Below the pieces are notes generated by a model. That model did not search any database. It had not been told where the DNA came from and saw only the letters and a program-made list of their open reading frames with translations. A DNA stretch of 64,000 nt from Leucosporidium creatinivorum (lineage: Eukaryota > Basidiomycota > Microbotryomycetes > Leucosporidiales > Leucosporidiaceae): the NCBI GenBank assembly GCA_001600635.1, contig BCKL01000028.1:252666-316665 (forward strand). Reading direction: 5' to 3'. Each line of letters starts with the position of its first letter. Positions within the stretch are counted from its first letter, which is position 1. Positions 32,860-56,231 of the stretch are shown in pieces. The translations under genes were made by a program, and so were the position numbers.

Positions 32860-33947
32860 ATGTCCTACGACCAGCCTCCCCCTCAGACCAAGATGGAGCA
32901 ACCTTCGCCTCTTCAAGCTATGAACTCGACCATCTCTGGCACGACGATGGGGCAACCTCAGGGTCACTCTGCTGTAAGCTCCCTCTCCTCTTCCTGCCGG
33001 CCTACAGGTGAGCAAGAGCTGATGTGGTGGATGCGCGACGACGCCGAGCAGAGCCAGCACCTTGGCCCAGACGGCAAGTTCTCCACCGGCCTGTGCGATT
33101 GCGACATCGGCGGCTTCTGTATCAGTTGTTGGTGCCCTTGCATTACTTATGGGGAGGTAAGTCGTCTCTTCCACCCACCCTAGCACCCGAACGAGCAGGA
33201 GGGAGGTGTAGCGTGAAAGAGGGATTAAGAGCTGACAAGGATGGCATGGAGCAGAACAAGCAGCGCTACGATAGCTTGAATGCGAGGGGGATAGCCTTGC
33301 CCAAGGAGCAGGTCGGTGAGTCGTCTTTGCTGCTTCCCTTCAGCGAGCTGGGAGCAGGGATCGACCGAGGCATGTGGGGCGCCGAGCTGATCCTTTCGCT
33401 GGGGGGGTCGCAGAGGGCTGCGGTTCCCACACGCTCGTCTACGCTGCTGTGCAGTGCGGTAAGTGTTCCTTCTATGGTGTCGGAGACGAGACAGGAAGAG
33501 CGATGGAGGGAGGCAGGGGAAAGCTGACTCTCGGCGCTCGAACTGACAGTCACCGGCTGGGGCTTCGTCCTCGACTTCCTCCTCCGTGGCGAGGTTCGCA
33601 ACGTGTGTCCTCTCTCTGTCTCTCCCGTCCCGTCTCCCTCGTTAACCCGCTCCTCTCGCCCCTCTCCCGCTCACTTCCTCCCCTCCCTCGCATCCCTCGC
33701 GGCCCCAACAGCGCTACCGCATCCAAGGGTCCGCCGGCTCGGACTTCTGCACCTCGTGCTGCTGCACCCCTTGCTCCTTGCAGCAGCAGAGCAGGGAGAT
33801 CGCCTTGGAGGAGGCGGGGCAGTGGGGCGCTCAGGCTGGTCATGGCAAGGTGAGTTCGAGGTGTTGGAAGGAGAGAGAAGGAGAGAGGGAGAAAGGAGAG
33901 AGAGGAGAGCTGACGATTTGCGTGATGATGGTCAGGATCAGGCCTAA
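32860..33947 (+). CDS. PLAC8-family Cys-rich protein (second copy)
   Basis: A Pro/Gln-rich start (MSYDQPPPQTKMEQP) is followed by the full PLAC8 domain: GKFSTGLCDCDIGGFCISCW, CPCITYGENKQRYDSL, CGSHTLVYAAVQC, TGWGFVLDFLLRGEVRNRYR and GSDFCTSCCCTPCSLQQQSR. The tail ends in GHGK-DQA. Cys-rich blocks flanking a hydrophobic segment are the family hallmark. Five or six exons join in frame. A short intron near 32972-33005 is uncertain, because the region also reads through. Compared with the first copy, this protein has a shorter N-terminus and a different Cys pattern, so the two are paralogues but not a recent tandem copy. Confidence 0.87.
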
Positions 33948-34429
33948 GCCTCGACTCAGCACGATTCGGCGACGGCTCGGCGTTCGCATGGACTGGCTCG
34001 CTTGCTTCTTCCCTCCCTCTCCCTCCGGTTCTCTCGCTTTGATCGCCCTAATTCTCGCTACTAGCTACCCCCCTCACGCTCGTTCTGTGCTCTGTATGTA
34101 CCCCCACTCCACCGTGACTCGATGCTAGTTCCCTTCCCCCCCCCTCCCCCCCCTGCGCTTTGAGTAGGCGGCGGTCGATGAACTCGAGGAGCCTGAAATC
34201 AGTTCTATCAAAGCCGAACTGTTTGGGAGGCAAGTGAGGGACGCCGGACAGAGTCAAGAGAGCGAAGCCGTTTCGAAAGGTGAAGGCGCGCCGGCGGCCG
34301 AGCTCGGCGTAAACTCGCCGCCGCTTGACGACGCTGTTGAGCGACAGATATGTCTGCGTAACCAGTAAGCAGTAGCTGAACACTTTTCTCTCAACATCTC
34401 TCACTTTCCCTGACATCCTGCAGCACCTC
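33948..34429. other. Intergenic, no gene
   Basis: Roughly 480 bases after the PLAC8 gene lead up to the outer edge of the inverted duplication. A C-run (CCCCCCCTCCCCCCC) lies near 34137-34151. No coding frame is supported. Confidence 0.45.
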
Positions 34430-34753
34430 GCCTCGCCCACCTGCGAACGCCGAACCTCGCCGCCACAAACGCCGAACGCCGACATGCTACGATTGGACGT
34501 ACATCTGAGTCAAAGTGACGATGGACGTCAGCTGTACACACACTCGAATCCGCCGTGTTCTCCGACTCGACCAATGAATGGACAGCATCACCGCCCACGT
34601 CAACCCTCGGCGCTACCGGGTCGCATCCGGATAAGCAAACAATTGAGCTTCTGTTGACATTTCGTCAGCTTCTATCACAGTCTACGGAAATGCGATGCAA
34701 TAATGCAGTGCTGAAAGACATGGTGAGGAGTCGAGTTAGTGTAGGTGAACAGG

Positions 34754-34760
34754 TATAAAA
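34754..34760 (+). promoter_or_regulatory. TATA box of the left secreted-protein gene
   Basis: TATAAAA lies 97 bp before the ATG. It sits in a block (GTAGGTGAACAGG, then AAAGCCGAGCGA) that is repeated almost unchanged before the right-arm paralogue. That argues for a functional core promoter. Confidence 0.75.
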
Positions 34761-34856
34761 GCCGAGCGACGGCTCGTCTCTTGCTTCCCTTCACTTCACT
34801 ACCGCAGCTCGTCTACTCTCCACCTCGAACCCCAACTCACCAACACTACCAACATC

Positions 34857-35788
34857 ATGCTCTTCACCTCCGCCTTCGCTTTGACTTCCCTTCTCGCTCT
34901 CGGCGCTTCCGCCGCTCCTTTTCAAGCTCGCGACGCTCCCACTGGCAACTCGTCGAACCCTGACGTCTGCAGGCCTGCTCTCACCGGCACTCCTTCTATC
35001 ATTCGATTCGATGCTACCAGTGAGTACTCGTACTGAGCTTCCGAGCGAGCGTCGCGACTGACCTTCCTCTTCGCCGAACAGCTCTCGACGTCCTCACTCC
35101 CACGGACGTCACTCAGGCTAGCTTTACCAGTGTGAATGTGGTGAGTGGACTTGTCCTCGCCGTTTGAGTGCAACACTGACCCCTCTCGACCTCTCTGTAG
35201 TCTCCTCGCAACACAATGGCGGACCCTTCAACCGCGCCCAACTTCAGTGTCATGGTCGGTGACTCGGCCAGGGGCACCGTTCAGATCAAGTGCGATCTGT
35301 TGCACTTTGCTATCACCCTGGAGCGATACTGACTTGGCTACAACCCTCGACAGGCTCACCAGCGGCTCATTGGAGGCCGGCTGCCTCGTCGCCGAGGATA
35401 AGGGCGTTGTCAGCGGATCCTGCGCCGACACTCTTGGTCGTCAAGAGGTGAGCTCATCTCTTCTACCTTGCCAAAGCTGTCAGCTGACCCAATCCCCAAC
35501 AGTTCTTCCTCACTTGCAGCGGCTGCACCGACGACGCCGCCAACGAGTGCCAATTCCAGAGCGCTTACGAGGGACAGTGCACCACTTATGTGGGAGACGG
35601 AAGTCTTGTGACTCTGACCAACTGCGACAACACCGGTCTTGTGGTGAGTCTAGCTTCTCCGGGCTCGATGAAGCTACCCCGGCCTCTCGGCGCGGGGTTT
35701 CGTGAGCAGCGAGCTGACATGTCGCTTCTCAATTCTTCAGTACCCCGATCCCCAGGCGCAGTACTTCAGCTTCGACCTCACCGCTTGA
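34857..35788 (+). CDS. Small secreted Cys-containing protein, left paralogue
   Basis: A clear signal peptide (MLFTSAFALTSLLALGASA) precedes a mature chain of about 180 residues. Its segments include NPDVCRPALTGTPSIIRFDA, TMADPSTAPNFSVMVGDSAR, SGSLEAGCLVAEDKGVVSGS, CSGCTDDAANECQFQSAYEG and DGSLVTLTNCDNTG. Eight or so Cys, including paired CxxC-like spacing, suggest disulfides. Six exons join in frame. I do not recognise the family. The right-arm paralogue at 48957-49884 shares the whole layout and all Cys-rich blocks, at perhaps 55-60 percent identity by eye. A secreted wall or environment-facing role is inferred from the signal peptide only. Confidence 0.85.
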
Positions 35789-36433
35789 GCGTGAATTGGT
35801 GCAACGAGGCTACTACTCGCCCTCGCCGAACTCTTCGCTTCATCCTCCGGCCGCTGCTATCCCCTGCAATCTGCTTCAAGTACATAGACATTGTACTGCA
35901 ACAACACTCCCACATATTTGTTCTTCAGGGAGTGTCCAACCTTGGGCAAGCTGGTGTACCAAGCCCCGTCGGACCCCGACAGAGCGCCGAGCTCGGCCTG
36001 CTGCAGCTCGGAGCCTCTTAGCAGAGCCTGAGCGTGAGCAGGCTGTTTCCGGGATCAGCAGCGCTTTCCAGGAAGCTGAGACGCTCCTCTGAAATGCCTC
36101 ATGGTCCAGAAAGCCGTGTCGGGAAGCAAGCTTCGCCGAGACGTCTGCTGCTTTTGTCCTCGCCTGGGCGGGCCACGGGCTCGCCACGGTGCTGAGCGCG
36201 TCAGTAATGAGATAGCTGCAGCCCCTATTGCCACTCACGGAGGTCTCCAGATCCTGTCTGAAGCACAGCGCTAGCAGAGGCTGTTCAGCCCCTCTACAGT
36301 CACTCTCAGCTCCTTTGATTCGCTGCCTGTAATTGTCTTGCTGCTCCTCTCCCTAGTCTCTTCACGCCCATTCGCCTCTCTCCCTTTCCCCTCATCTCTC
36401 GTCTCTCTACTCGGCTACAATCTCGGCAATAAA
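35789..36433. other. Intergenic within the left arm
   Basis: There are 645 bases between the secreted-protein gene and POP5. The last 70 bases (CTCTCTCCCTTTCCCC, then CTCGGCTACAATCTCGGCAA) match the right-arm POP5 leader. The corresponding right-arm spacer is about 2.8 kb. Confidence 0.5.
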
Positions 36434-38317
36434 ATGGTCCGCTTCAAGCACCGCTATCTTCTGCTACATCTCTTATGCCCCACCACCCTGGCCAACCCTC
36501 TCGCCGACTCCAACCCGGATGAACAGCAGCAACTCCCCTCGGCGCCAATAGTCGGCGAAGCGGGCTTGATCTCGCTGTTGAGGGATAGTCTGAGTGTCAA
36601 TTTTGGGGATGTGGGAGCGGGTGAAGTGGGTGGGAGCTTTGGCAGTGAGTACTGCAGAATCGATGTTGCTGGGAGGGCTGGAGCTTTGACGGTGCAGAGG
36701 AGCAAGAGCAGAGGCTGTAGGAGAGCAGGGCGGTGCTGTATGAGCTCCAATGGAGCTTGGAGCAAAGCTCTAAGGCTGCAGAACGAGAGCAGTGGAACCA
36801 GCTGGCCTCCCCTCACATCCGCGCTTCTGCGGGAGCTGTAGCTCTTGTGGCTGACGGCTGTTGTCGTTGAGAAGGTTGCACTACTGGATTCAATCTCCCC
36901 AATTCTCGCTTGCCCGGGCCTCACCATGACCCCAGCCTCGCCGGCTCGTAGGACAGCGCTCGAGGTCTTCGCCGCTCAAAGTGCCGAGGCTTTGTTTCGC
37001 TGTACTCCACGACAGGAGCTCTGTACGAATTGAAGCCTCGACAGAGTGCTCCAGAGGTTCACGCTGGTGCTCTCGTGCCCTGCGTGGACACTTCGCACCC
37101 TTCCGTTGTTTGCTCGGCTCGAGGACTCAAGCTGTGCTATGTGCACCTTGGCTCCGGGAGGTGCAGGTTCAACATTGTATCCTTTGAAGTCGTCCGGTGA
37201 GCAGCAGCCCCACGGAACATGGCTGGGGGGAAAGGCGCCGAGCGGTCACAGGCGGTTCTCGGCGATTGACTGCGCTGCGGGCGCTTCATGTGAGCGCGTT
37301 AGGTTTCGTCTTCATCTACGCCGCTATACCGCAGACGTGTCAAACCTGGTCTTTGAGGTCCTCATGTCTCCCCGCAACTCCCTTGCCTGGGCTTGTGGCG
37401 CGGCGGCGCAGGTTGCGCCGCTGGGAGGACTATGGAAGAGCATGAGAGAGAAAGGGCTCGCAACAGGGTGATGCGACGCTTTCAAGGAGTCTACAGCCTG
37501 GTTAGAGTATGCCAAAGTGGTCCGCAACTCCAGGCTCGCTTCTCCTCTCTCGCGGCGCTGATCGACAGGCTCCGCCGTTCATGACCTTGCTTCAAGCAGG
37601 GGTTCGAAGGTGCTGCTACTCAATGAGCGTGGTGGCGTCGCATGAAGCTTTGCCTCCCGAGAGCAAGGTCGTGGCCTGTTTCTCTTCGGCGAGCGACCGC
37701 TGACCTTACTGCTTCCGATTTCTTCCTTCCTTCCCCTTGTCGTTACACCCTGCCTCCTTCTTCCGTCCTCCTCTTCCCATCCCGACCTCTACACCATCTC
37801 TTACCGACAGTCAAGTACCTCTCACCGCACACCAACATCCTCATCATCCGCGTCTCGCGTGAGCACTACCGAACGCTCTGGGCAGCTTTAACCTTGCTGA
37901 GGAGGATTGGCGGGGTCGAGGTGATCGTCAGGTGTTTGCATGTGGGAGGTGAGTTGGTACTGTGACCTATTCGCTCCCATGTCCCCACTCTACCTCGCCC
38001 CCTTCCGACACCTCGTCCTTTCCTCGCTCAGCTCGCCGAGCTTCACCTTCTCTACCTCCACCTCTTGCGACACGAGCTGACTCCTGTCTTCACCAAATAC
38101 AGGAACCATTCGCAAGACTCAACACGCCGCCATCGCCTACGACCGCGCCGAGATCCTGGAAGCAGCAGCCAAGCGGAAACGAGCTGAGCGCCGACGAGCA
38201 GCAGCACTGGGGTCGAAGACGCCAGCTGCAAATGAGGGAGAAGTCGAGGAGATGGATGAGACTACCAAGACGCTACTCGAGCAGAGCGAGAAGGAGTTGA
38301 TGGGGATGGAGGCGTAG
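36434..38317 (+). CDS. POP5: RNase P/MRP protein subunit POP5, left copy
   Basis: Pop5 is a protein subunit shared by RNase P (tRNA 5' processing) and RNase MRP (rRNA processing). Exon 1 (36434-36644) begins MVRFKHRYLLLHLL and contains LISLLRDSLSVNFGDVGAGE. Exon 2 (37811-37948) encodes IKYLSPHTNILIIRVSREHY, LWAALTLLRRIGGVEVIVRC and LHVGG. Exon 3 (38103-38317) continues TIRKTQHAAIAYDRAEIL and ends in an acidic tail (ELMGMEA). The MVRFKxRY start and LHVGGTIR block are family hallmarks. Intron 1 is 1,166 nt, roughly ten times the usual intron here, and contains no ORF. A second intact copy lies in the right arm. Confidence 0.9.
36645..37810 (+). other. Oversized first intron of the left POP5
   Basis: It has donor GTGAGT and acceptor TTACCGACAG. 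Its content aligns along its length, with many changes and indels, to the first intron of the right-arm POP5 (about 44811-45946). The expansion therefore predates the duplication. No transposon ORF or terminal repeat was found. Confidence 0.75.
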
Positions 38318-39038
38318 GAGGGTGCGGCGATGGGAGCGCCGAGGGAGGGTTGGTCAAGCTCGCTCGCTGGAGGAGCTGGATCAAGGTGGACGATGTAGGA
38401 TAGCTGTTGTGACGACTAGAGTGGTGGGGTAATACGCTTCGATCCAGCTTTTGAAGGCCAGCAGCTGGGCGAGTCAAGCTCGGCGGGGCACTCTCCTCCT
38501 CTCGACTCTCCTCCTCTCGACTCGCGTGCAGCTTCCCCTCGCCGCTTCAGTCGCTGAATGATCTCTTCCCTGCTTCAGCCCAGCCCGTCTTCCGATCTCG
38601 AAGCCACAAAACGGGCGCGAGTGACGGCCTCAGCAGCCTCGCCGATTTCGCTAAGTCCGTCCGCCACCGTCGCGGACGGACTTGGTAGGATTCGAGGCGA
38701 GGGCGTCGGAGGCTTTGATGAGAGGAAAAGAGGTGAGCTAGAGTCGAGCCTCGTCGGCGCGATGGAGTCGACGCTACTAGACTGTAGCTTTGGCCCTGCG
38801 AGGATGATCGGTGTGCTGCTCTCGATCAGCCGGCGCCGAGCAGGGCAGTCAGCTCGAGAACGAATGGATGAAGAAATCTGTTTGGTGTATAACTCTGCAG
38901 CAGGCACAACTAGGAAACCCTCCTTCTCCTTCTTGCGAACTGAAACACCGATAGCCGTCTCCTCCTCTGCCANCGAGCCGTCNATAACTCTGCTCCGAAT
39001 CGCCGAGCTTAACCTCGCTCTCGAAACGCCGTGACCCA
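38318..39038. other. Intergenic within the left arm, contains a hairpin
   Basis: This is the 3' spacer between POP5 and the VMA2 fragment. It is alignable to 43584-44290 in the opposite orientation. No gene is seen. Confidence 0.6.
38653..38683. terminator. Perfect 12-bp inverted repeat between convergent 3' ends
   Basis: AAGTCCGTCCGC (38653-38664) and its exact complement GCGGACGGACTT (38672-38683) flank a 7-nt loop. The mirrored site in the right arm (43936-43966) has one mismatch. It sits between the 3' ends of POP5 and the VMA2 copy, so a role in 3'-end formation is possible, but this is inference. Confidence 0.45.
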
Positions 39039-39966
39039 CTACTGCTCGGGCGTAGGCTTGACCTTGCGCGAGTAGAACTCGTCGAGAACTTTCTGTGGGT
39101 NGTGAAGAAGGAGGGGTCAACGTTTGGTCGCATGCGAGAGAGGCGAGAGGGAGACGACGAACTCGAGGGATACGGTTGAGTTGCTGTTGGGGGTGCAAGA
39201 GGGAGGGGGGTCAGCGATGAGAGTCAGGAGTAGTAGTGCGATAGAACGCACCTCGCGAGGGAAAGTCCTGAGCAGCGACCAGGCCAAGTCGAGCGATTCG
39301 AAAACGGTACGGTTCTCCGAAATGCCCTGGTTGACGAACTCGTTCTCGAACTGTGGTGGTGTAGCATTAGCGGTAAGACCGTGTAGTAGAGTAGGATTGA
39401 TGACTCACGCGGCCAAGGAAGGACAGGGCGAGCTGTTGAGGGAGGGANCGTTGAGTTGGTCAGCTCGGTCGGCGGGAGGAAGCCCAAGTCGAGCAACTCA
39501 CCTTCTCCTCCGCGCTGAGTGCCTCTTCTCCTACGACCGCCTTCATGCCAGCAGTATCCTTGCCGATAGCGTACATCGAGTACATCCTGCGGGGTCAGGG
39601 CGAGAGAGGGAGAGGAGGAGGGGGAAGGGGAAAGAGAGAGGCCGAGCTTGGAAGTCAGCGTCTTGCTTCGACTGAACTTCAGAACCATCGAAAGTCAGGA
39701 CTCAAGCTCAAACTCACTGGTTGGACACATCACCGTGATCCCTCCTGGTCAAGCCCTCGCCGATAGCAGACTTCATCAGGCGCGAAAGGGAGGGGAGGAC
39801 GTTGATGGGCGGGTAGATCTGCTTGTTGTGCAGCGTACGGTCCACCGAGATCTGGCCCTCGGTAATGTAGCCCGTAAGATCAGGGATCGGGTGGGTGATG
39901 TCTGTGAGCGAGCGGGGTACAAGCGGGAGGAGCGCGAAAGAGCTCGGCGAACGGTGATGGACCCTG
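39039..39966 (-). pseudogene. VMA2: Truncated 3' copy of VMA2 (V-ATPase subunit B)
   Basis: This fragment carries only the last exons of subunit B. It starts at [17 protein letters not shown] (39738-39900) and includes [33 protein letters not shown] and QLNRIPR. It ends at [12 protein letters not shown] with the stop at 39039-39041. All intron positions match the complete gene at 40302-43583, and the retained exons have no stop. The N-terminal half and promoter are absent; similarity ends near 39966 inside what would be the preceding exon. Differences from the full gene are few: in one exon, KDTAGMKAV against KDAAAMKAV. From 39550 down to about 38880 the match is nearly exact, introns included. 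It cannot make a whole subunit and is best called a duplicated gene fragment. Confidence 0.9.
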
Positions 39967-40301
39967 TTTTCCGCAGGGCAGGGAGCTGTTCCCGCTCCCC
40001 GGAGCTGTTGAGGAACGTAAGAGGTATATAGCTCTCTTTGAGGAAAGCGACAGCGCATCTGCTACCCTACAGCCCGACATGAGGACTAATTATAAGAAGG
40101 CTGAAGCAGAATCGCCGAGCAGGCGAGTTACAGAGGCTCAAAGCTCGGAAGTCGCGTGCATATACTGAAAAGAGTGTTTGCGATCTACTGAGCGACTCCA
40201 CTAAGCTGCAGCATCACATTTGACCCCTTTCCCCTCCCCTCGTCTCTCGCCCGTCTCTCTCGCTGCTCCCGCTCACTTCATCTCATCCAACTCGTCCTTC
40301 G

Positions 40302-43300
40302 ATGGCGCCCTCGACCGCCGACCCTCGTATCTCTGACCGCGAGGTCCACGCGTAAGCTATCGCTTTACAGCTTTTGACAAGCAGCAAGGAGCGGCTCCAC
40401 CACTTCGAGGCTCGAGTGGGTCTATGGGCGCTCTGCTCGCCGAGGGAGGGGCTCAGTTGGCCTAGATAATCTACAAGGCTACAGCAGGCCGGTCTGCCTG
40501 CTCACAGCTACTCTACAGAGCTGTAGCGGACCAGACGGACAAGCTCGAGCGTAGCGTCACGGTCGCCGTCCTCCTTGGGCTGAGCGGAGCCATCCAGCAG
40601 GTTAGGCAAGCCGAACTTCTAGCAATGAGTACTGACCTACATTATCTCTCCATATCTCTCTTCCCGCTCTCCTGCACTTCCTCTCTCTCCCTACCGAATC
40701 GCACCCACCTCCGACCCACGCCTCCTCCCCTCGGCCCTCTCGTCTGATCGCCTGGATCGTGCTCCCTCTCTACGTTGGCGACATTACACCTTCTTAACGC
40801 ATCCTCTGCCATCTTCGCTGCCCTTCAAACCCCCTTCGGCTGCATCTTGAACAGCATCAACGCAGCGGCCGCCGTTCGTCGCTACGATGTCAACCCCCGT
40901 CTCGACTACAGGACCGTCTCGGCCGTCAACGGTGGGTTTCTGATATCTCCCGACAAGCTTCGATGACACCTCGGAGCTCTTGAGACCTGCAGCAGCGGCG
41001 ATGGACTCGGCGGGAGATGCACACGGTCTCTCGCGCTCAGGCGTCATGTTCGTCCAGACGAGCAGGCTACTGAGTTGCAGGGGACTGCCAGGATCTCTCG
41101 ATTTGTTGAGGGCACCCTGTCGCTGATGGGGTGGATTTGGAGAGCCGCCATGGGAGCATGCAACGAGCTCACGCGATATGCTGCTCGCGGCAGGTTGACG
41201 TTCAGATGCGGCGACAGGCTTCGAGGGAGCGGGGGAAAGGGGATGAATGCACGTCTCAGAAAGAGGGCGTGGTCACAAGGCGGATGAGGTGCTCTGGCTG
41301 TTCGGCGCTTGTCGACCTCGGCTGGCAAGAGCCGCTTCTGCACCGCAACTTTGATGGCTCTGAGACTATCTTACTGACTCTCGCTCATTCAACAGGTCCT
41401 CTGGTCGTCCTCGACAACGTCAAGTTTCCCTCCTACAACGAGGTAGGTCATCGGCCGCTCTCGCCGAACCGCTTCGCTCACCCCTTCGCTCCCCACAGAT
41501 CGTCCAACTCACCCTCCCGGACGGAACCACTCGTGGTGGACAAGTCCTCGAGGTTTCTGGCCGCAAAGCCATTGTCCAGGTCTTCGAGGGAACCTCGGGA
41601 ATTGACGTCAACGCTACTCACGTCGAGTTCTCGGGATCCAGCATGAAGCTGCCCGTCTCGGAGGACATGCTCGGTCGCATCTTTAACGGTAGTGGAAACC
41701 CCATTGATAAGGGCCCCAAGGTTTTTGCCGAGGAGTACCTTGACATCAATGGGGCGCCCATCAACCCCTACTCTCGGATTTACCCCGAGGAGATGATCCA
41801 GACGGGTATCTCGACCATCGACACGATGAACTCCATCGCTCGTGGTCAGAAGATTCCCATCTTCTCGGCTTCCGGACTTCCTCACAACGAGGTAGCGCAA
41901 TCTTGTCTCCTTCGCCGAGCAGCCTCGCTGACTTCCTTCTTACTCATCTCTCCCCTCCCTCTCTCGCTCCACAGATTGCCGCCCAGATCTGTCGTCAAGC
42001 AGGTCTCGTCGACAAGAAGTCGACCGAGCGCAACCCCGAGTCGGCGCCTACCAAGGGCATCCACGACGGCCACGAGGACAACTTCTCCATCGTCTTCGCC
42101 GCCATGGGAGTCAACATGGAGACCGCTCGCTTCTTCCGTCAAGACTTCGAGGAGAACGGATCGCTCGACCGCGTCACCCTCTTCCTCAACTTGGCCAATG
42201 ACCCCACGTTCATTGCCTTCGTTCGCCTGTCGTTAAGGAGCTCGCTGACCTCTCCTTCTCCAACAGCATCGAGCGTATCATCACTCCTCGTCTCGCTCTC
42301 ACCACCGCCGAGTACTACGCCTACCAGCTCGAGAAGCACGTCCTCGTCATCCTCACCGACATGTCCTCCTACGCCGACGCTCTTCGTGAGGTCTCGGCTG
42401 CTCGTGAGGAGGTTCCCGGACGTCGTGGTTACCCTGGATACATGTACACGGAGTGAGTCACTTACTTATCGGATCCGAGCGAGTAGGCGGACGATGGAGC
42501 TGAGCTGACATCTTCTCGCCGAACGCAGTTTGTCCACGATCTACGAGCGCGCTGGACGTGTCGAGGGCCGCAACGGGTCCATCACCCAAATTCCTATTCT
42601 CACCATGCCTAACGATGGTGCGCCGCAACGTCTCTCCCCTTTCATCTCGCCTGCTACCAGCTCAGCGCCGAGCTCGTTCGCCAAACTAACCCTTGTCCGC
42701 CCTCCTTCTCTACGCTCGCTCACAGACATCACCCACCCGATCCCTGATCTCACGGGTTACATTACCGAGGGCCAGATCTCGGTGGACCGCACGCTGCACA
42801 ACAAGCAGATCTACCCGCCCATCAACGTTCTCCCCTCCCTCTCGCGCCTGATGAAGTCTGCCATCGGCGAGGGCTTGACCAGGAGGGATCACGGTGATGT
42901 GTCCAACCAGTGAGTTTGAGCTTGAGCCTCCTCATCACCGGTTCTTGAAGAGGAGAGCCCGAAGCTGACTTCAACGCTCGGCCTCTCCTCTCCCGCCCCT
43001 CTCCCCTTCTCCCTCACCATTCTCTAACCTCGCAGGATGTACTCGATGTACGCGATCGGCAAGGACGCTGCTGCCATGAAGGCGGTCGTAGGAGAAGAGG
43101 CACTCAGCGCGGAGGAGAAGGTGAGTTGCTCGACTTGGGCTTCCTCCCGCCGACCGAGCTGACCAACTCAACGNTCCCTCCCTCAACAGCTCGCCCTGTC
43201 CTTCCTTGGCCGCGTGAGTCATCAATCCTACTCTACTACACGGTCTTACCGCTAATGCTACACCACCACAGTTCGAGAACGAGTTCGTCAACCAGGGCAT

Positions 43301-43583
43301 TTCGGAGAACCGTACCGTTTTCGAATCGCTCGACTTGGCCTGGTCGCTGCTCAGGACTTTCCCTCGCGAGGTGCGTTCTATCGCACTACTACTCCTGACT
43401 CTCATCGCTGACCCCCCTCCCTCTTGCACCCCCAACAGCAACTCAACCGTATCCCTCGAGTTCGTCGTCTCCCTCTCGCCTCTCTCGCATGCGACCAAAC
43501 GTTGACCCCTCCTTCTTCACNACCCACAGAAAGTTCTCGACGAGTTCTACTCGCGCAAGGTCAAGCCTACGCCCGAGCAGTAG
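40302..43583 (+). CDS. VMA2: Vacuolar H+-ATPase catalytic-sector subunit B
   Basis: Subunit B is the regulatory nucleotide-binding subunit of the V1 sector that acidifies vacuoles and endosomes. Exon 1 (40302-40351) encodes [17 protein letters not shown]. Exon 2 (40855-40931) gives [14 protein letters not shown]. Later exons give [80 protein letters not shown] and [20 protein letters not shown]. The rest reads [49 protein letters not shown] and the C-terminus KPTPEQ. Introns 1 (503 nt) and 2 (464 nt) are long for this genome. The 3' third lies inside the right arm of the inverted duplication and is nearly identical to the left-arm fragment. Two N bases (43174, 43521) fall in it, both at intron positions. 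Confidence 0.95.
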
Positions 43584-44290
43584 TGGGTCACGGCGTTTCG
43601 AGAGCGAGGTTAAGCTCGGCGATTCGGAGCAGAGTTATGGACGGCTCGGTGGCAGAGGAGGAGACGGCTATCAGTGTTTCAGTTCGCAAGAAGGAGAAGG
43701 AGGGTTTCCTAGTTGTGCCTGCTGCAGAATTATACACCAAACAGATATCTTCATCCGTTCGCTCTCGAGCTGGCTTCCTTGCTCGGTGCCGGCTGATGGA
43801 GAGCAGCCCACCGACCATCTTCGCAGGACCAGCGACAGTCTAGTAGCGTCTACCACTTCGTACTGACAAGGCTCGACTCTAGCTCACCTCGTTTCCTCTC
43901 ATCGAAGCCTCTGACGCCCTCGCCTCGAATCCTAGAAGTCCGTCCGCGACGGTGGCGGACAGACTTAGCGAAATCGGCGAGGCTGCTGAGGCCGTCACTC
44001 TCGCTCGTTCTCATGGCGTCGAGATTGGCAGACGAGCTGAGCGCTGGAGCAGGATTGGAAGACCGTCGAGCGGCTGAAGGGGCGCGGAGAAGCCGCACGC
44101 GAGTCGAGAGAAGAGTGCTCCGCTGGACTCAAGTCGCCCGGCTGCGGGCCTTGCGATGCTGTATCGAAGCATATTAGCCCACCACTCTACTCGTTACAAC
44201 AGCTATCCTACATCGTCCACCTTGATCCAGTCTCCTCCTGCGAGCGAGCTAGACCGACCCGCCCTCGGCGCTCCCCTCGCCTCACCGCTG
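43584..44290. other. Intergenic within the right arm
   Basis: This is the 3' spacer between VMA2 and the right POP5. It is alignable in reverse to 38318-39038 and includes the imperfect hairpin at 43936-43966. No gene is seen. Confidence 0.6.
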
Positions 44291-46157
44291 TTACGCGTCC
44301 ATCCCCATCAACTCCTTCTCGCTCTGCTCCAACAGACTCTTCGTACCCTCATCCATCTCCTCGAGATCTCCCTCGTCTACAGCTGCCGTCTTCGACCCCA
44401 TTGCTGCTGCTCGCCGACGCTCAGCTCGTTTACGCTTGGCTGCGGCTTCCAAGATCTCGGCGCGGTCGTACGCGATGGCGGCGTGTTGAGTCTTGCGGAT
44501 GGTTCCTATTGGTGATGTAGGACAGTGTCAGCTGGGCTTCGAACAGGGGTAGGGGTCGAGTCGACGAGCGTCGAGCTGAGCGAGGAAGAGACGGCGACTG
44601 GAAAGTGCGAGGTGAAATGGAGCGAGAAGAGGAAAAGACGAAGACACCGCATCAACTCACCTCCCACATGCAAGCACCTGACGATCACCTCGGCCCCGCC
44701 AATCCTCCTCAGCAAGGTCAACGCCGCCCAGAGCGTTCGGTAGTGCTCGCGCGAGACGCGGATGATGAGGATGTTGGTGTGCGGGGAGAGGTATTTGACT
44801 GTCGGTAAGGGACGGATTGAGGCGATGTGGAAAAGAAGGGGTGAGGCAGAGGGAAGGGCAGAGGGCAGTGGTGGAAGGCGGAGAGCGAGGGAGGAACGCA
44901 AGGTCAGTTACCCGCTCGCCTAAAGGAAGAGATCGCGAGTTTGGGCTAGGGGGACGGCACTGCACTTGTGGACGACGGGAAGCAGGTCGGGACCCAGCAC
45001 CGTCGCGCCCTCACCCGAGGCAAGGACACGAATGGGGAGGCGACCGACAACCGCCGAGCAGCGAGAGAAGCGTGAATGAGCTTCACGACACCAACTCGGG
45101 AGACGCCACTGTGACCCAGCAAGGGTCATGCTAGCTTACCCCGAGCCGGCTTCAAATCAACAGCCTACGCAGCTCGCGCAACCTGCGCCGCCAAGCGAGC
45201 TGAAGGCTGATGCGAAGGGCTGAGGCGATCTCGAGGGTACGTGAGCGATTGCAGTAGCGCTGTGTAGCTAGGGTAGCGACCACGCTCCGAGCGACGAACA
45301 TGGAGCGCTCCCAGCGCATTCCATCGCCGAGAACCGCCGGTAACCGCTCGGAGCTTCTTCTCCAGCCCTCCTTGCGAGGGCCGGGGCACTCGGGAGAGGT
45401 CAGCCATAGCACTGTTGAGCCCTCACTTCAAGGAGTCAAGGTTCCGACAGCGCGGTTCCGAGTCCTCGAGCCGAGTAAACGGCGGAAGGGTGCGAAGCGT
45501 TCACGCAGGGCACGAGAGCACCAGCGTGAATCTCTGGAGGACTCTGTCGAAGCTTCCTTTCGTAGAGAGCTCCCGTCGTGGAGTACAGCAAACCAGAGCC
45601 TCCGCACTCTGAGCGGCGAAGACCTCGAGCGCTGACCTACGAGCTCACGAGGCTGCGATGGAGGAGGGAGTAGCGAAAGAGAGAAGTACAGCTCACGATC
45701 CCCGCAAGATTAACAGACGCCTCCCACAAGAGCTACAGCTCTCGCAGCAGCGCGTCTGTGAGCTGAGGGCCGCCGGCTGCTCTTCCTGCTTGCATCGAGT
45801 CGCCCTACAGCCTTGAAGCTCTGCTTCAAGCTCCTTCAAAGCTCGTACAGCACCGCCCTGCTCTTCTCCACCCTCGGCTCTGCTTCCTCTGCTCCCTCAA
45901 AGCTCCAGCCCTCCCAGCTAACAGCGATTCTGCACCTTCCCGTACTCACTGCCAAAGCTGCCACCCACTTCACCCGCTCCCACGTCCCCAAAGTTGACAC
46001 TGAGACTGTCCCTCAACAGCGAGATCAAGCCCGCTTCGCCGACGATTGGTGCAGAGGGGAGTTGCTGTTCGTTCGAGTTGGAGTCGGCGAGAGGGTTGGC
46101 CAGAGTGGTAGGGAATAGGAGATGTAGCAGAAGATAGCGGTGCTTGAAGCGGACCAT
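44291..46157 (-). CDS. POP5: RNase P/MRP protein subunit POP5, right copy
   Basis: This second POP5 has the same three-exon layout. It begins MVRFKHRYLLLHLLFPTTLA, includes LISLLRDSLSVNFGDVGAGE and, after a long first intron, VKYLSPHTNILIIRVSREHY and IGGAEVIVRCLHVGG. It ends with TIRKTQHAAIAYDRAEILEA and the acidic tail LMGMDA. Compared with the left copy it shows conservative changes (P/S, V/A, E/D, one Gln fewer in a short Gln run) and no stops. Both copies look functional, which is unusual for a core RNase P subunit normally present once. Its long first intron aligns to that of the left copy with clear divergence, so the duplication is not recent overall. Confidence 0.9.
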
Positions 46158-48956
46158 TTTGCTGTCGAGCCGTAGCCGAGCAGAGAAACGAGGTGCGATG
46201 AAGGGAGAGGGAGAGAACCGAACGAGGGTGAAGGAGGCGAAGTCGGCGAAAGGGTCCAGGCGACAGGCGGCAGGCGATTGAGGACAAGAATAACAGAATG
46301 AACCCAGCAACAGCTCGAGCACTTTGCTCACTTTGCTGCCAGTTCAGTCATGTCCTGCCCTCCCGCCGTCGGCGCCGAGCATGACAGCCTTCGTCGGGCC
46401 GCGCGGCGAGGTGTCCCTAGAGGCCGTCCGCGCGATGATCTGAACAGCGAATAGTTCCTCGACTACCACCTACCACCCTGACGAGCCAGTGGCCCGCCTA
46501 GGCGATGAGACTGGGCGAAGAGGCGTCTCGGCGTTGAGAAGCATTCTATGCGAGCGCGATGCCGACACATCCCATGACTCAGCGGCACACGAGAAAAGGC
46601 GAGCAGGAGCCACCTTCATCCCGCTTCCCAGCGAGAGCGAATCCCTCCCGAGAGCGCGAGAAGGAGCGCTGAAGCTGCCCCAGTTCTTCCTTCGCCGAGC
46701 AGCGAGCCTAGATCTCCATCATGGGCCCAGCAGGAAGCACGTCCGCCCGATCAACTTGTACGCTGAAGCAACTCCACGCCATCTCTGCGCTCGAGGCTGG
46801 CCGAACACCGAGCAGACGATGAGGAGCGACCGTAAGCTGGGCAGAGCGAGAGGTCAAATGCGGAGCCGAGGGCTGCATACCAGTGAGGACTTATGCCCAA
46901 GTAGTTTCTCCGCCGAGACGATACAGCATATAGTAAAGCTTGAGAGCTGAAAGACGAAGCAAGAGCCGAGCACGGAGCGAGCAGCGAGAAGGAGAGAGCT
47001 GATTTCGACTTGCTCGCTCTGCAACCTCTCTCCTCCTCCACTTCTCGCCCTTCGTCTCGACTAGTTCGCCTCATCGTAGGGTACGGCTCCTCCGCTCATC
47101 TACAGGACCACAGCTCAGGACGGAAATCTGCTTGACTCGACTGGGAGCGGTTGCGGAAGGAGAGCAGCTCGAGATCAGGACGGGAGGAAGGCGCTGAGAG
47201 CGCTCGGCTGGGCTTCGCTGAGAAATGGGATTGGACTGGAACTAACAGAGTGAGACAGGGAACGGGTAAGCACCTAGTACGATGGCTGGCTGCTTCACTG
47301 CAGACGCTGAGGAGGGTGCGAAGCGCTGCCAAGATCATACACTCTTGAGTTGGGGGTCGCTCGCTCGCATGTTTTGCTCAACGGTCTATCGCTGATAGTC
47401 TGTAGGGCCGACATTACAGTAGAGTAAACGGTCTCATTTTTGTCTCGTGGTCAGTGTAGGCCATCTCTCTCGACTCTCAGCCGCTTGCCGAGCTGCAGAG
47501 TTCAGATCCTCGCGTTCGCTTGATCTGCCTACTCCGCGTGAGCTGGGAGAGTGAGTGATAATTTGTTCGAGGTGTCGGTCTCTCCATCATCTTTCCCCGC
47601 AGCCGGTAGGCGAGGATCAAGCTCTTCGGCTGATCTGCGCCTAAGGGGCACCGAGCCTCCGCCTCACCCGCTCGTCGGCTACTCAAGGAGCAGCGGACTT
47701 GGGACAATGTTGAAATCATTTGCCCTCCTCAAGTCTGATCAGCTCCCTCACCCTGCTTCTTCCACAACAGCAAGCTCTCGGCTCGGAGGTCCCTCATCGG
47801 CGGCGGCGCTCAGCTCGACTTTCGCTTGCTGGTCTCTCTTTGCAGCGAAAGAGCGCTACGGGAGTGTGAAGTTGTGCGATCGATCCGAATTTGCCCGAAA
47901 GCTGAGCAGCTCAGAGTACGCTGCCAACCCAGATCGAGCCGACTGAGCTGGCGCAAATGGTCGCCGAGGAGCGTTCACCGATACTCTGGCTCGCGACAGA
48001 CAGCGAGCCGGGGAGCGGTGTCAGCACCTCTGTGCAGAGCCTTACACGTTTGTGCATGAGATGCTCCTGGGCAGTTGAGGCTTCAGCGCCTAAGACTCCG
48101 CGCTCGGAGCAGCAGCACCCATCGCCGAGGCTCGCCCCTCCCTGCTTAGGAGGGGGAAAGAGCTCAGCTTGATGACGGGGAGCTCTCCTTCCCTATCCCA
48201 TTTCAACTGTGAAATACCGCCAACTTCGCATAGCTGGCCACTGCTCCGCCCGACCCTCCGAGCCGCTCGCTTGATCTGCGCCGACTCGCCCTCAAGCTTC
48301 GCCGAGCTACCCTCGTAGCGAGCTACCTGCCTCGCCGCGTGGTCGACGTGGTAGTTGGTGATGAGGTGTAGGTTGGTATCGGTCGATCTACACAAGTCTT
48401 CGGAGGGACGCAGCGGCAGGCGAGCTGCAGGCTCACAGTTGGCAGCCGCTTCCTCCGGCGCCAAACACTTGCGACTCGCTCTCTCTTTGCCGTTCATCTC
48501 TGTCCGCTTCGACGTAGGGCCAAGATACAATTGCGCGCTTGAGCGACTCTGCACCGTATCAGTGCGGTTTCACGACGTAGCAGCTATCAGGGGGGCATTC
48601 GCATCGCCGGCAGTCGACGAGGGCTCATAGGCATGGGCTCTCGAGCGTCCAGGGTCGATGAACGCCTCCTCGTCTCTGGAAAAAGCTATCATAGCGTCTG
48701 AGATAGCTTCTGCAAGCCTCTGAGGAGTTGAGGCAGCAACAGCCCGTGTTCGGTGCACTTTCGGCTTTCGGGCGAGCTCGCAAGTGAGCTTACTGAGAGC
48801 TGATCGTTCGCCAGAAGGAGCAAGAGGGTCTTTGGGATATGTCGGTGCAGTGGAGTGTCTATCGAGCTACCCTAGGAGGACGGAAGGGGGGGCCTCTGAG
48901 CCATGACGGAAAGTCAGCTCCAGCTGCAAGACAACGATGAGGAGCCTCGCACCTGA
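46158..48956. other. 2.8 kb without a recognised gene; asymmetric spacer of the right arm
   Basis: The first 80 bases match the left POP5 leader. After that I find no similarity to the 0.65-kb left spacer, so about 2 kb was inserted here or lost on the left. Open frames (46489-46950 plus, 48090-48554 minus) have no family resemblance, and I found no transposase, reverse transcriptase or clear terminal repeat. Confidence 0.5.
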
Positions 48957-49884
48957 TTACGCGGAGGTGGTGAGGGAGAAATCAAAGTACTGCTGAGTAG
49001 CCGTAGGATACTACACGAAGGATAGAAAAGGTCAGCTCGCATTCGCCGAGGACTCACGCCGAGGAGAGGTGGAGCGAGCTGAGAAGTCTGACGCACCTCG
49101 AGACCCTTGTTGTCACAATTAGTGAGGGTGACAAGACTCCCGTCGCCGGTGTAAGTGATGCACTGACCTTGATAAGCGCTTTGGAACTGGCATCGGCTGG
49201 CGGCCTCCGAAGTGCAGCTGCTGCACGTGAGGAAGAACTGCTCGGGATTGCGTCAGCTAAGAAAGAGTCAGTTTTCTTATAAATGAGCCTACATCCTGAC
49301 GGCCGCGAGAGTCGGTGCAGGATCCACCAACAACGCCCTTGCCCTCGGCGATCAAGCAGCCGTCCTTCTCGATGGCGCTGGTCAGCCTGTTGAGGGTAGG
49401 AATCGGGTCAGCAGTGCTCGGCGACGATGATGAAGCTTGATGTTTCGTACTTGACCCGGACAGTGCCCCTTGCCGAGTTGCTGACGACCACATTGAAGTT
49501 GGGCGCTGTGTCGGAAGCGGCCATCGTTCCGCGAGTTGCCTACAGAGAGCGCGAGGCCGGTCAGCTCCAGGGTTGGAGGAGTTGGTAAGAGTCTACTCAC
49601 CACCGACAAGCTTGCGAAGCCGGTTTTAGTGAGCCCGGTGGGAGTGAAGACCTCGCGAGCTGTTCGGCGAAGGGGAGGTCAGTCGGGGTTGCTCGCTCGG
49701 CCGCTTGGTGCCGTTACTCACCCGAAATGTCGTAGCGGATGAGAGCTGGTACACCGGTGGGTGCCGGCCTGCAGATGGCAGGGTTCGAGGCGCTGCCAGT
49801 CGGGGCGTCGCAGGCTTGAAGTGGGGTGGCGGAAGCGCCGAGAGCGAGAAGGGAGGTAGCGACGAAGGCGATGGTGAAGAGCAT
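48957..49884 (-). CDS. Small secreted Cys-containing protein, right paralogue
   Basis: The signal peptide (MLFTIAFVATSLLALGASA) and mature chain follow the left paralogue block by block: NPAICRPAPTGVPALIRYDI, TMAASDTAPNFNVVVSNSAR, EKDGCLIAEGKGVVGGSC, FFLTCSSCTSEAASRCQFQS and DGSLVTLTNCDNKG. It ends SLTTSA. Exon junctions lie at the same places. The promoter is also shared (TATA at 49978-49984). The two genes are the outermost parts of the inverted duplication and are more diverged than POP5 or VMA2, as expected of relaxed or divergent selection on a secreted protein. Family not recognised. Confidence 0.85.
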
Positions 49885-50480
49885 GGTGTTCGAGTACGGG
49901 GAGATGAAGTTGAAGGTGGGGTTAAAAGACGAGCTGAGGCGGTGAAGTGAAGAGGAGGAAGAGCCGTCTCGCTCGGCTTTTATACCTGTTCGCCTACACT
50001 GCTCGCTTCCTTCAGCTGTTCAGGTTCGAGCACTGCATTGCATGTACCGCCGTGGACTGTTTTAGAAGCTGGCGAAGGTGAAGGTGCAGCTCAAATTGGT
50101 CCCGACCAGATGCGACTCGCTAGCGCCGAGGGTCGAAGGAGCGGTGCTCTCCAAATTGGTGAAGTCGAAGCGGCAAATACTCTGTAGGAGAGCAGAATAT
50201 ATAGTGCAAGCTGTGTGAGAGCCGACGTAATGATGTCAGATCTTGGTGCAAAAGTAGCATGCCGGCGTTCGGAGATCCCTCAAGCGAGCTCGGCGTTCGC
50301 GAGTCAGAGCTCTCGAAGGCGCGGACCTGTAGGTAAGGGTGAACAACGAGTTGCTTTCTAATCAATTACTGCAGGTAATGCGTTCTATGGATCCGATGTG
50401 TCGTCTAAGAGGTCGACTTGAAATTCTAATGAGTGGAGCGCGGTGCGAAGAAATCCCGAGAGTCCTGTTCTCCAGCCACT
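49885..50480. other. Promoter of the right secreted-protein gene and outer edge of duplication
   Basis: Reverse-strand text from 49885 to about 50310 aligns to 34430-34856 (shared blocks GTAGGTGAACAGGTATAAAA-like, CCCTCGGCGCTA, CGAACGCCG). From 50310 to the transporter stop at 50481 there is no match. Confidence 0.6.
49978..49984 (-). promoter_or_regulatory. TATA box of the right secreted-protein gene
   Basis: On the minus strand this reads TATAAAA, 94 bp before the ATG. It sits in the same GAACAGG-TATAAAA-GCCGAGCGA context as the left copy. Confidence 0.75.
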
Positions 50481-53104
50481 TTACTCCTCATCATCGTCGA
50501 GGTTCCTGGGCTGAACGTTCTCGTGGTGCTTCTGGGTGGTCTGGAGCTTGAGCGAGCCGCCGTCGGTGGCGTTGCGCTTGGAGGCTCCGCCGAAGGGGAC
50601 CCAGCTGGACGAGCGCCAGGCGGGAACGCGGGAGAGGTAAAGCTCGTCGACCTGGACGAGGGAGAGTCCCTTGGTCTCGGGCTGCGTTGAGGGAGAAGGA
50701 GAGGTCAGCTACGGGCCTTTGACACCAGACGAGGTGGCTCGGCGAGGGGGGCGGGGCGGTGAAGTTCGGCGGGAGACAGATGGAGGAGTCGGCGGGGAGG
50801 TTTAGCGGGATAACAGCTACTTACGACGAAGAAGAACACGAAGAGGGTCATAACGACAATCGCGGCGGCCCAAATAAAAGTGATCTTAGCCTGTGAGGTG
50901 CAGAGAAGGTCAGCGCAGGCCTACTATGCAATCGAGCGAGCCAGACCAACCTGTAGGTCGCCATACCCCGCGTCTGTAATAGTGTAGTAGAAGGCCGCAG
51001 AGGAAGCGAGGAGCAAAGGGAAGGTCAGCGCGAGCTTTGGAGGCGAGAAAGGCGCGGGGGAAGCGGTGGAGACGGGAGAGCAACGCACCGGTGATGTAAG
51101 GGGTGATCATCGCGAGGATGAAGTTGTTCAGCCAGTTGGAAGCGGTAGCGAAGGCGACGCAGTAAGGAGCCATGCGAACGGGGAACTGCTCGGCGGCGAC
51201 GACCCATCCGAGAGGTCCTGGAAAGAGCGAGTCGGGTCAGCTTCAGCCCCCCAAGAGTAAGCTACACACCAACAACTCACCCCACGAAGAAGCGAAACCA
51301 AAGATGAAGATGCAGGAGAAGGTGATGAGGATCTTTCCAGCGACCTCGCCGTCGGGGTAGGCGGTTCCAAGGGCACCAGCGACGACCTGACCGGTGAACA
51401 TGATGAAGGAGCCGATGAAGAGGGTTTGACGACGGCCGAGCTTCTCGACGGCGAGGAGACCGGGGAAGGTCGAGATGACGTTGACGGCGCCGAGGATGAC
51501 TTGGATGAGGAAAGAATCCTTGATGCCGGCCGAGGCAAAGAACTTGACTCCGTAGGAGAAGAAGAAGTTGACTCCGGTCCATTGCTGGCCGGCTTGGACG
51601 CAGATCTGTCAGTGGGGAGAGAGTCAGCCTCCGCCGAGCAGCTCGATTCGGAGAGCCCGACTTACACCGATGAGGGTACGGAGACCCATGCGGCCCTCGC
51701 TCCTGAAGCAGTCCATGTAACTGGCATCTCCGGCAGCCTCCTCCTCGCGCTGGCGGGCGACATACTCCTCAAGCTCAGCCTCGAGCTCCTCATCTCCAGG
51801 CGCAAGACCACGGAGCTTTCCGAGGTTGATGCGAGCCTGATCGATGTTTCCGCGCATCACGTAGAAGCGGGGCGACTCTGGGCAGAAGACGGTGCCGATG
51901 AGAACGAACGCTCCCCAGACGAGCTGGAGGGCGATGGTGAGGCGCCAGGAGAGGGGGCCCTCGACGTCGTGCATCTTGTAGTTGACGACGTTGGCAAAGA
52001 AGATTCCGAAAGTGGCGCAGAGCTGGTAGGTCGAGGTGATCATTCCACGGAGGTGCTTGGGCGAGCACTGGTGAGATGAGAGAGAGACGGGTCAGCGAGA
52101 GTGCGGCGATGTCGAGGCACCTTTGTCGTCGCGCTAAGGAGAAGCGAGAGAGAACAAAACTCACCTCAGCCTGGTAGAGAGGAGCAAGCATAGAGAGGGC
52201 TCCAACACCGTAACCGGCGATGAAGCGACCGGCGAGCATCTGTCCCCACTGAGTCATGGAAGAGAGCTCGATAGCGACTCCGATGAGGAATATGACGAGC
52301 CTGCATGTAGGAAGATGTACCAAGGTCAGCGATGGTCCTTGAGCTTCGAAACGCCAGCATTCATCCGCTCCCTTCCTTCTCGGCGAAGGTCAAAGCGCGA
52401 AGAACTCACGAGATGAGGTAAGCGACCTTGATACCGAGCTTGCCGGAGATACGTCCAGCGAGGAGAGCACCGAAGAGAGCTCCGAGTCCTGCGAGTAGTG
52501 GCGACCGAGATGAAAGTCAGCGAGCTGCTGCGAGGGCGTCGAGCCGAGGGACGAAACGGACCCATGAACGAAGTGATGAGAGCCTGGCGAGTCGAAGGGA
52601 TGGAGAAACCGGTGATGGAGGTAGGGTCGGCAGTTCCGAAGCGCATTTGGTCTGTAGAGCGAAGGGGAAGATGAGGTCAGCTTTCCAATCGTCGGATGCG
52701 AAGGCGCGAAGCGAAGGGCGCGAAACTCACAATCCCTGCAGTTGACGAGTCCCGAGATTCCTCCAGATTCCCATCCTGTAGTAGAGAAAATACGAGTCAG
52801 CTTTGCTCTTCCCTTCCTTCGATGATCGCATCGTCGCGAGAGAAGTTCAAAACTCACCGAACAGCAATCCCGCAAGACTCTGGAAGAGGCAGAGCACCAC
52901 AACGAAGACGGGTGCACGGTCCTTAGCGACGGGGCGCTGGCCTTGGTCTACATGCACGCCGGTAGGCTTGGTGGAAGTAGGAACATCAGACTGCTGGAGA
53001 GCGGCGGCCTCCTTGTTGCCTCCCTTGAGCGACTGGGCGCGCGAAGGAGGTTGCGAAGGGACGATGGTCGTCGCCGCTGAGGGCGGTTGAGTGTGGGACG
53101 CCAT
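50481..53104 (-). CDS. MFS sugar transporter (hexose-transporter type)
   Basis: This is a twelve-helix sugar porter of the plasma membrane. After a polar N-terminus (MASHTQPPSAATTIVPSQPP) the helices begin FVVVLCLFQSLAGLLFG. Family signatures visible across about ten exons include RLVIFLIGVAIELSSM, MLAGRFIAGYGVGALSMLAP, CSPKHLRGMITSTYQL, PESPRFYVMRG after helix 6, and QWTGVNFFFSYGVKFFASAG (Q-x-x-G-x-N-sugar contact). EKLGRRQTLFIGSFIMFTGQ and PETKGLSLVQVDELY follow helix 12. The C-terminus is charged and ends NLDDDEE. Basidiomycete HXT/quinate-type proteins look alike, so the substrate (glucose, xylose or other) is open. Start and stop are the first Met and the first stop in the spliced frame. 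Confidence 0.92.
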
Positions 53105-56102: not shown

Positions 56103-56231
56103 ATCGTCCTACAGAGCGATGCGAACGACGAGGTGAAGAGCAGGAGGGCAAGAGGTGTGATCGCTTCACCTTCTCTCCCTCCTTCGAAGCCTTCCCCCCA
56201 CCGAGTCGTCATCTCTTCATCGCTAAGGAGA
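56103..56231. promoter_or_regulatory. Short bidirectional promoter between IMP1 and the DUF4504-like gene
   Basis: Only 129 bp separate the two divergent start codons. No TATA box is visible. The stretch is CT-rich in the direction of the plus-strand gene. Confidence 0.6.

What the first reader, a model, noticed from the sequence alone, without database searches (positions are those of the whole stretch)
34430..50310. A 16-kb inverted duplication folded around VMA2
Two arms carry the same elements in mirror order: a promoter and secreted-protein gene, POP5, a hairpin spacer and the VMA2 3' end. Homology continues into the promoters (34430-34856 against 49885-50310) and into the POP5 introns, so one ancestral event probably covered the whole block. 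The pairing places two convergent or divergent copies of essential genes face to face, a form that is prone to hairpin-driven rearrangement. If real, it is an unusual stable foldback at an essential locus.
Basis: seen in the sequence. Interest (0 to 1): 0.8.

Follow-up and report, generated by a model that had tools for sequence, protein, structure and literature searches.

The report
Eroded inverted duplication around VMA2
A stretch of a fungal chromosome carrying three neighbouring genes is present twice in mirror image; it looks like an old, decayed duplication in which one short stretch was recently copied from arm to arm, an ordinary kind of genome rearrangement.

Summary
The mirror-image homology is real. 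Left blocks (34560-39914) match right blocks (42713-50170) in inverted, collinear order: secreted-protein gene, POP5, intergenic hairpin, VMA2 3' end. It is not a 16-kb foldback: the arms are patchy (introns 56-68% identical, one tract 100%), unequal (5.4 and 7.5 kb) and separated by a single-copy 2.8-kb spacer holding the 5' half of the only complete VMA2. The left VMA2 is a 3' fragment (exons 8-13). In the genome POP5 matched only these two places, three other ATPase-type genes matched once each, and the right flank had no second copy, so a hybrid genome or retained haplotype is unlikely. Mirror order favours one old event, though synonymous divergence differs between the genes (0.78, 0.255, 0.16). 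A 598-bp tract at the VMA2 3' end is identical, introns included, and points to recent gene conversion between the arms; but all six Ns of the window lie in it, so its exact identity and the orientation of the spacer are insecure. Best explanation: old inverted duplication, one VMA2 truncated later, POP5 kept twice, partial homogenisation. New member of a known kind; low to moderate interest.

The parts
34857..35788 (+). left secreted-protein gene (SEC-L), 6 exons, 197 aa, signal-like N terminus (by eye)
   Evidence: spliced open frame with GT-AG introns; 65.0% aa identity with SEC-R, dS 0.78, dN/dS 0.31; Pfam CDtoxinA 16 bits, below the cut-off of 22
34560..34856 (+). homologous promoter region of SEC-L with conserved TATAAAA block 34738-34769
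   Evidence: (I21)
36434..38317 (+). left POP5 (POP5-L), 3 exons, 187 aa; intron 1 is 1166 bp
   Evidence: Pfam PF01900 E 1.4e-30; POP5 chain 6ahr_E E 8.4e-15; intact frame
38615..38725 (+). quasi-palindromic hairpin between the convergent POP5-L and VMA2-fragment 3' ends; core 38653-38683
   Evidence: fold z -4.67; core pattern found at 2 places in the genome with up to 3 mismatches, both in the arms
39039..39901 (-). left VMA2 3' fragment: exons 8-13 (39718-39901, 39502-39586, 39409-39432, 39252-39350, 39163-39183, 39039-39092)
   Evidence: homology ends at 39914, 13 bp into intron 7
39902..40058 (-). possible new 5' end of the fragment: in-frame ATG at 40058, open for 53 codons into exon 8, not homologous to VMA2
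   Evidence: as long an open run with an ATG arises in 386 of 5000 base shuffles, so it may be chance
38950..39547 (.). 598-bp tract identical to 43075-43672 (N columns counted as matches): probable recent gene-conversion tract, perhaps partly an assembler consensus
   Evidence: isolated Ns at 38973, 38983, 39101, 39448
39915..42712 (.). single-copy spacer: upstream region and exons 1-7 of VMA2
   Evidence: no second match in window or genome
40302..43583 (+). complete VMA2 (V-ATPase subunit B), 13 exons, 513 aa
   Evidence: V-ATPase subunit B 3j9t_B E 2.3e-266 over residues 10-506; Pfam ATP-synt_ab and ATP-synt_VA_C
43075..43672 (.). right copy of the identical tract
   Evidence: Ns at 43174, 43521
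43895..44003 (-). right copy of the intergenic hairpin; one C-G pair becomes U-G
   Evidence: fold z -2.50
44291..46157 (-). right POP5 (POP5-R), 3 exons, 186 aa
   Evidence: Pfam PF01900 E 1.7e-30; 93.0% aa identity with POP5-L, dS 0.255, dN/dS 0.15
46240..49080 (.). right-arm interval between POP5-R and SEC-R, about 2.1 kb longer than on the left, unique in the genome
   Evidence: no Pfam hit at E up to 0.01 in the 3 ORFs scanned, of ten ORFs of 100 aa or more that overlap it
48957..49884 (-). right secreted-protein gene (SEC-R), 6 exons, 199 aa
   Evidence: Pfam CDtoxinA 22.8 bits against a cut-off of 22
49885..50170 (-). homologous promoter region of SEC-R

Best explanation
An ancestral block SEC-POP5-VMA2 was duplicated once in inverted orientation next to itself (inferred). 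Both arms then diverged for a long time while the genes were under purifying selection, so POP5 and VMA2 exons stayed alike and introns drifted (contrast shown; selection inferred). Later the left VMA2 lost its 5' half and promoter, probably by a deletion at the centre of the inverted repeat, leaving exons 8-13 (truncation shown; order of events inferred). Both POP5 copies stayed intact (shown as open frames, not as expression). Gene conversion between the arms recently rewrote about 600 bp of the VMA2 3' end, probably from the complete gene into the fragment (tract shown; conversion and direction inferred).
For: Mirror-order homology. Introns outside the tract are 56.2-67.7% identical in all three gene pairs, against means of 40-46% for shuffled introns. 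POP5 matched 2 places in the genome, both here; the VMA2 DNA matched only itself and the fragment, and the ATPase family gave three other loci; 50400-58400 gave itself and one 63-bp match on another contig. dN/dS is 0.15 for POP5 and 0.31 for SEC; no stop or frameshift in any spliced copy. In the VMA2 fragment exon 8 has 6 differences, all silent, while intron 8 has 42 in 126 aligned bases (Fisher p 5e-13): the fragment did not drift freely since the duplication. Two amino-acid changes in exon 9 (DAAAMKAV to DTAGMKAV) hit residues that the yeast protein keeps, as expected after a later loss of function. The 598-column identical run compares with at most 102 in 10,000 shuffles of the 258 mismatch or gap columns among 2131, and it holds three introns, as modelled, at 100%.
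Against: dS differs: SEC 0.78, POP5 0.255, VMA2 0.16 outside the tract, which could mean events of different age; I ascribe it to codon constraint plus conversion, not proven. Intron identity is near saturation and so weak evidence for equal age; for two of the five SEC introns (3 and 5) it does not exceed the best of 20 shuffles. All 6 Ns of the window lie in the two copies of the identical tract, so the consensus there may be artificially uniform. An in-frame ATG with 53 open codons leads into the fragment, so it may not be dead. No outgroup could be searched, so the ancestral order is assumed.
Confidence: 0.6

Rival explanations
1. The inverted duplication itself ended inside VMA2 intron 7, so the left copy was truncated from birth, and its exons were kept similar only by repeated gene conversion from the complete gene.
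For: Homology ends within intron 7 at 39914, so no second deletion is needed. Conversion evidently occurs nearby. Diverged introns are said to impede conversion, so exon-limited tracts are conceivable (PMC3966223, passages).
Against: Exons 8 and 9 are similar while intron 8 between them is 66.7% identical; conversion would have had to stop near both exon borders.
Confidence: 0.17
2. Independent duplications (SEC pair older, POP5-VMA2 pair younger) that came to lie in mirror order.
For: dS falls from 0.78 (SEC) to 0.255 (POP5). SEC belongs to a small family with a third member at contig position 332419-332634.
Against: Mirror order and orientation of three genes; high intron divergence in all three pairs. 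The third SEC is more distant: 42% over residues 113-181 against 74% between SEC-L and SEC-R over 133-182.
Confidence: 0.12
3. The left fragment is a live truncated gene: a new start at 40058 gives about 53 new residues followed by the V-ATPase B C-terminal part, and selection on that protein keeps exons 8-13.
For: In-frame ATG at 40058 and open frame into exon 8; silent changes dominate outside the tract, 8 silent to 2 replacing over 74 codons.
Against: Such an open run with an ATG appears in 386 of 5000 shuffles of the same bases; the two replacements hit conserved residues; no promoter or expression evidence; the same pattern follows from late truncation.
Confidence: 0.08
4. Assembly artefact: two haplotypes or a hybrid subgenome joined head to head, or a short-read misjoin through the 598-bp tract.
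For: All 6 Ns of the window are isolated single bases in the two tract copies, 4 of them at mirrored positions. Six loci from outside the window (two of them overlapping) have none and a seventh has one 30-base gap. Short reads cannot cross a 598-bp identical tract, so the orientation of 39548-43074 is not secured by them (the read type is inferred).
Against: No second copy of the right flank beyond one 63-bp match, of VMA2 or of the other ATPase genes. Intron identities of 56-68% are too low for alleles. Outside the tract the arms differ enough to assemble uniquely.
Confidence: 0.06
5. An invertible locus: crossovers between the arms within the shared VMA2 3' end flip the spacer, and either orientation gives a complete VMA2.
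For: The tract covers 46 of 85 bp of exon 9 and all of exons 10-13 with the stop codon in both arms, so an exchange there would rebuild an intact VMA2 (inference). Inverted repeats in budding yeast give both conversions and inversions (PMC8748988, passages).
Against: No isomer has been seen. A crossover in the tract would not protect exon 8, which is also conserved. In a human Y palindrome inversions are rare beside conversions (PMC3723533, abstract).
Confidence: 0.05

Closest known systems
Gene-bearing palindromes of the human Y chromosome (P6, P8)
   Same: mirror-image arms carrying genes, identity ascribed to gene conversion between arms, and loss of much of one arm (PMC3723533 and PMC6790999, abstracts)
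   Different: arms here are short and 70.7-88.6% identical over the main blocks, not above 99.9%; the genes include housekeeping genes
Adjacent inverted paralogs with gene conversion in Caenorhabditis, e.g. hsp16 modules
   Same: inverted paralogs close together, conversion inferred from local identity beside diverged sequence (PMC3966223, passages)
   Different: here three genes wide, and one gene is truncated
Foldback (inverted) duplications made at double-strand breaks in yeast
   Same: an origin that would give this mirror layout (PMC10622511, search listing with the start of the abstract)
   Different: the original junction here is eroded or deleted, so this origin cannot be tested

Membership tests
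Long inverted repeat with gene conversion between arms | arms homologous in inverted, collinear order | tested here: met
Long inverted repeat with gene conversion between arms | a tract of unusual identity crossing neutral sequence | tested here: met
   598-column run including introns; 10,000 shuffles reach at most 102; caveat of the Ns
Long inverted repeat with gene conversion between arms | inversion isomers in a population | not testable with these tools
   one assembly only
Hairpin- or cruciform-forming palindrome (foldback) | no spacer or a short one, and high arm identity | tested here: not met
   spacer 2798 bp between homology ends 39914 and 42713; inner block 88.6%, outer block 70.7%
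Hybrid or diploid haplotype duplication | neighbouring genes also present twice in the assembly | tested here: not met
   right flank 50400-58400: itself and one 63-bp match at 83% on contig C23; three other ATPase loci; left flank not searched
POP5 (RNase P/MRP subunit) | PF01900 domain over the cut-off | tested here: met
   both copies, E 1.4e-30 and 1.7e-30; left copy also matches POP5 chains in the PDB
VMA2 (V-ATPase subunit B) | full-length match to V-ATPase subunit B | tested here: met
   right copy only; the left holds the C-terminal part
CDtoxinA domain (PF03498) proteins | score over Pfam's cut-off | tested here: inconclusive
   SEC-R 22.8 bits against 22; SEC-L 16 bits, below

The most novel reading that the evidence does not exclude
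The locus is an invertible V-ATPase gene: recombination between the inverted, conversion-maintained 3' ends flips the VMA2 promoter and 5' half; each orientation gives an intact VMA2 but places it against a different POP5 copy, and this exchange keeps the spare 3' end of the gene in working order.
Probability: 0.05. Interest if true: 0.6.

Novelty: new member of a known kind. Interest (0 to 1): 0.28.

Why it matters
It is a clear natural example of how a gene-bearing inverted duplication ages: outer parts drift, one side of the centre is lost, and a shared gene end is homogenised. It also leaves this fungus with two intact, selected copies of POP5, an RNase P/MRP subunit that is usually single copy (general knowledge, not tested here). 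It warns that near-identical inverted tracts in an assembly can hide true differences and true orientation. As to print: a search for POP5 with VMA2, duplication and yeast returned 0 papers; one for POP5, RNase MRP, paralog, duplicated and basidiomycete returned 1, without the word POP5; of 82 papers only 8 were listed and seen, none with 'V-ATPase subunit B'. The library holds open-licence papers only.

Tried and rejected
RNA gene or exon in the conserved stretch of POP5 intron 1 (36926-37130; 28 differing columns of 206): no Rfam family at the gathering threshold in the window; two sub-threshold hits at E up to 5 in 36300-46300, one on the intergenic hairpin and one inside VMA2; no tRNA. Fold z-scores -1.98 and -2.42 in the left copy but -0.73 and -0.52 in the right copy. 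One forward frame is open in both copies apart from a stop in the first left codon, with 52 of 66 residues alike, but the differences fall 6, 9 and 10 on codon positions 1, 2 and 3, no sign of coding selection. Left unexplained; it may be an older conversion patch.

Hairpin as a dispersed element: the core occurs at no third place at up to 3 mismatches. Covariation cannot be judged from two copies: of 32 pairs, 1 has a one-sided change kept as U-G and 0 a two-sided one.

Mobile element as cause of the longer right interval: no other copy, and no Pfam hit in the 3 ORFs scanned of ten.

Full report
What is there. The window lies in a 27.7-Mb, 63-contig assembly on a 344-kb contig. Intron-rich genes fit a basidiomycete-like fungus (inference). 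Self-comparison shows three large and one small inverted match in mirror order, reported as 23 ungapped inverted pieces within 33000-52000. Five of five block-shuffled controls gave nothing better than E 0.14.

Gene content. From outside to inside each arm holds a secreted-protein gene (SEC), POP5 and the 3' end of VMA2, with POP5 and VMA2 convergent. Splicing by hand at GT-AG borders gives open SEC-L (197 aa), SEC-R (199 aa), POP5-L (187 aa) and POP5-R (186 aa). VMA2 proper is on the right: 513 aa, matching yeast V-ATPase subunit B over residues 10 to 506. Its 21-bp exon 12 (43439-43459) was missed in the models and set by likeness to the yeast protein; the same bases stand on the left. The left VMA2 consists of exons 8-13 only; homology stops at 39914, 13 bp inside intron 7. 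An in-frame ATG at 40058 would add 53 residues unlike VMA2; 386 of 5000 shuffles of the same bases do as well.

Genome context. Each search below examined one genome, the window's own, and counts are lower bounds by the tool's own statement. PF01900 matched 2 places, both here. PF00006 matched 10 exon-sized places: five in the complete VMA2, one in the fragment, and four in three other loci on contigs C1 and C8, presumably VMA1, ATP1 and ATP2 (names inferred). DNA of 38000-44000 matched only itself and the mirrored parts, and 36400-37800 likewise. The right flank matched itself and one 63-bp stretch at 83% on another contig. The left flank was not searched. SEC has a third, more distant relative at contig position 332419-332634.

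Divergence (simple Nei-Gojobori counts). SEC: 65.0% aa identity, dS 0.78, dN/dS 0.31. POP5: 93.0%, dS 0.255, dN/dS 0.15. VMA2 fragment: dS 0.16 and dN 0.012 over the first 74 codons, 0 and 0 over the 73 codons in the tract. Intron identities: SEC 67.7, 60.0, 56.2, 56.4 and 57.0%; POP5 66.6 and 62.5%; VMA2 intron 8 66.7%; three introns in the tract, as modelled, 100%. Shuffled introns average 40-46%, but the best of 20 shuffles exceeds SEC introns 3 and 5. SEC synonymous and intron divergence do not differ (p 0.14), while POP5 and VMA2 synonymous sites are less diverged than their introns (p 0.003 and 0.011). I read this as one event, with conversion or codon constraint slowing POP5 and VMA2 exons; separate events are not excluded, and introns this diverged cannot date it.

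The identical tract. The longest identical run is 598 columns, 38950-39547 against 43672-43075, N columns counted as matches; shuffling the columns 10,000 times gave at most 102. All 6 Ns of the window are isolated single bases inside it: two on the left opposite C (38973, 38983), and two pairs at mirrored positions (39101/43521, 39448/43174). Shared Ns suggest that reads of both arms were pooled by the assembler (inference). The tract is therefore very nearly but perhaps not exactly identical, and short reads could not have fixed the orientation of the segment between the two tracts.

How it arose and works. A fragment dead since the duplication should have exons as diverged as introns, yet exon 8 has 6 differences (184 bp, all silent) against 42 in 126 for intron 8. 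So the left VMA2 was either whole for most of its life and truncated lately, which I favour, or kept by exon-limited conversion, or is a live shortened gene. Two changes in exon 9 at residues that yeast also keeps fit recent loss of constraint. Both POP5 copies look functional from sequence alone.

Hairpin formation is favoured by short spacers and high identity; a review notes that 6-kb repeats with a 280-bp spacer are stable in wild-type yeast, though not when DNA polymerase alpha is reduced (PMC7999016, passages). With 2.8 kb the relevant process is homologous recombination between arms, giving conversions and inversions (PMC8748988, passages). An inversion within the tract would leave VMA2 complete, which makes the invertible reading possible but unproven.

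Limits. No relatives of this genome are held, and no reads or RNA data. Homology beyond 34560/50170 is weak.

Noticed in passing
36926-37130 and 45458-45662 (POP5 intron 1): About 205 bp of intron kept at roughly 86% while neighbouring intron is near 50-60%; no Rfam family, no sign of coding selection.
   Followed up: partly
34857-35788, 48957-49884; contig C28:332419-332634: Small family of secreted proteins; one of the two window copies passes the cut-off of the CDtoxinA Pfam domain, narrowly.
   Followed up: partly
38615-38725 and 43895-44003: Quasi-palindromic hairpin between convergent POP5 and VMA2 3' ends, its core found at no third place in the genome.
   Followed up: partly
54143-54225 and 54425-54511: Direct repeat of 87 columns, 80% identical.
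   Followed up: no
window 34000-51000: The word CGCCGAG/CTCGGCG looks very frequent in introns and intergenic sequence; seen by eye, not counted.
   Followed up: no
32605-33180 (+) and 51793-52389 (-): Flanking open frames with a sub-threshold PLAC8 match (left) and a sugar-transporter match over the cut-off (right).
   Followed up: no
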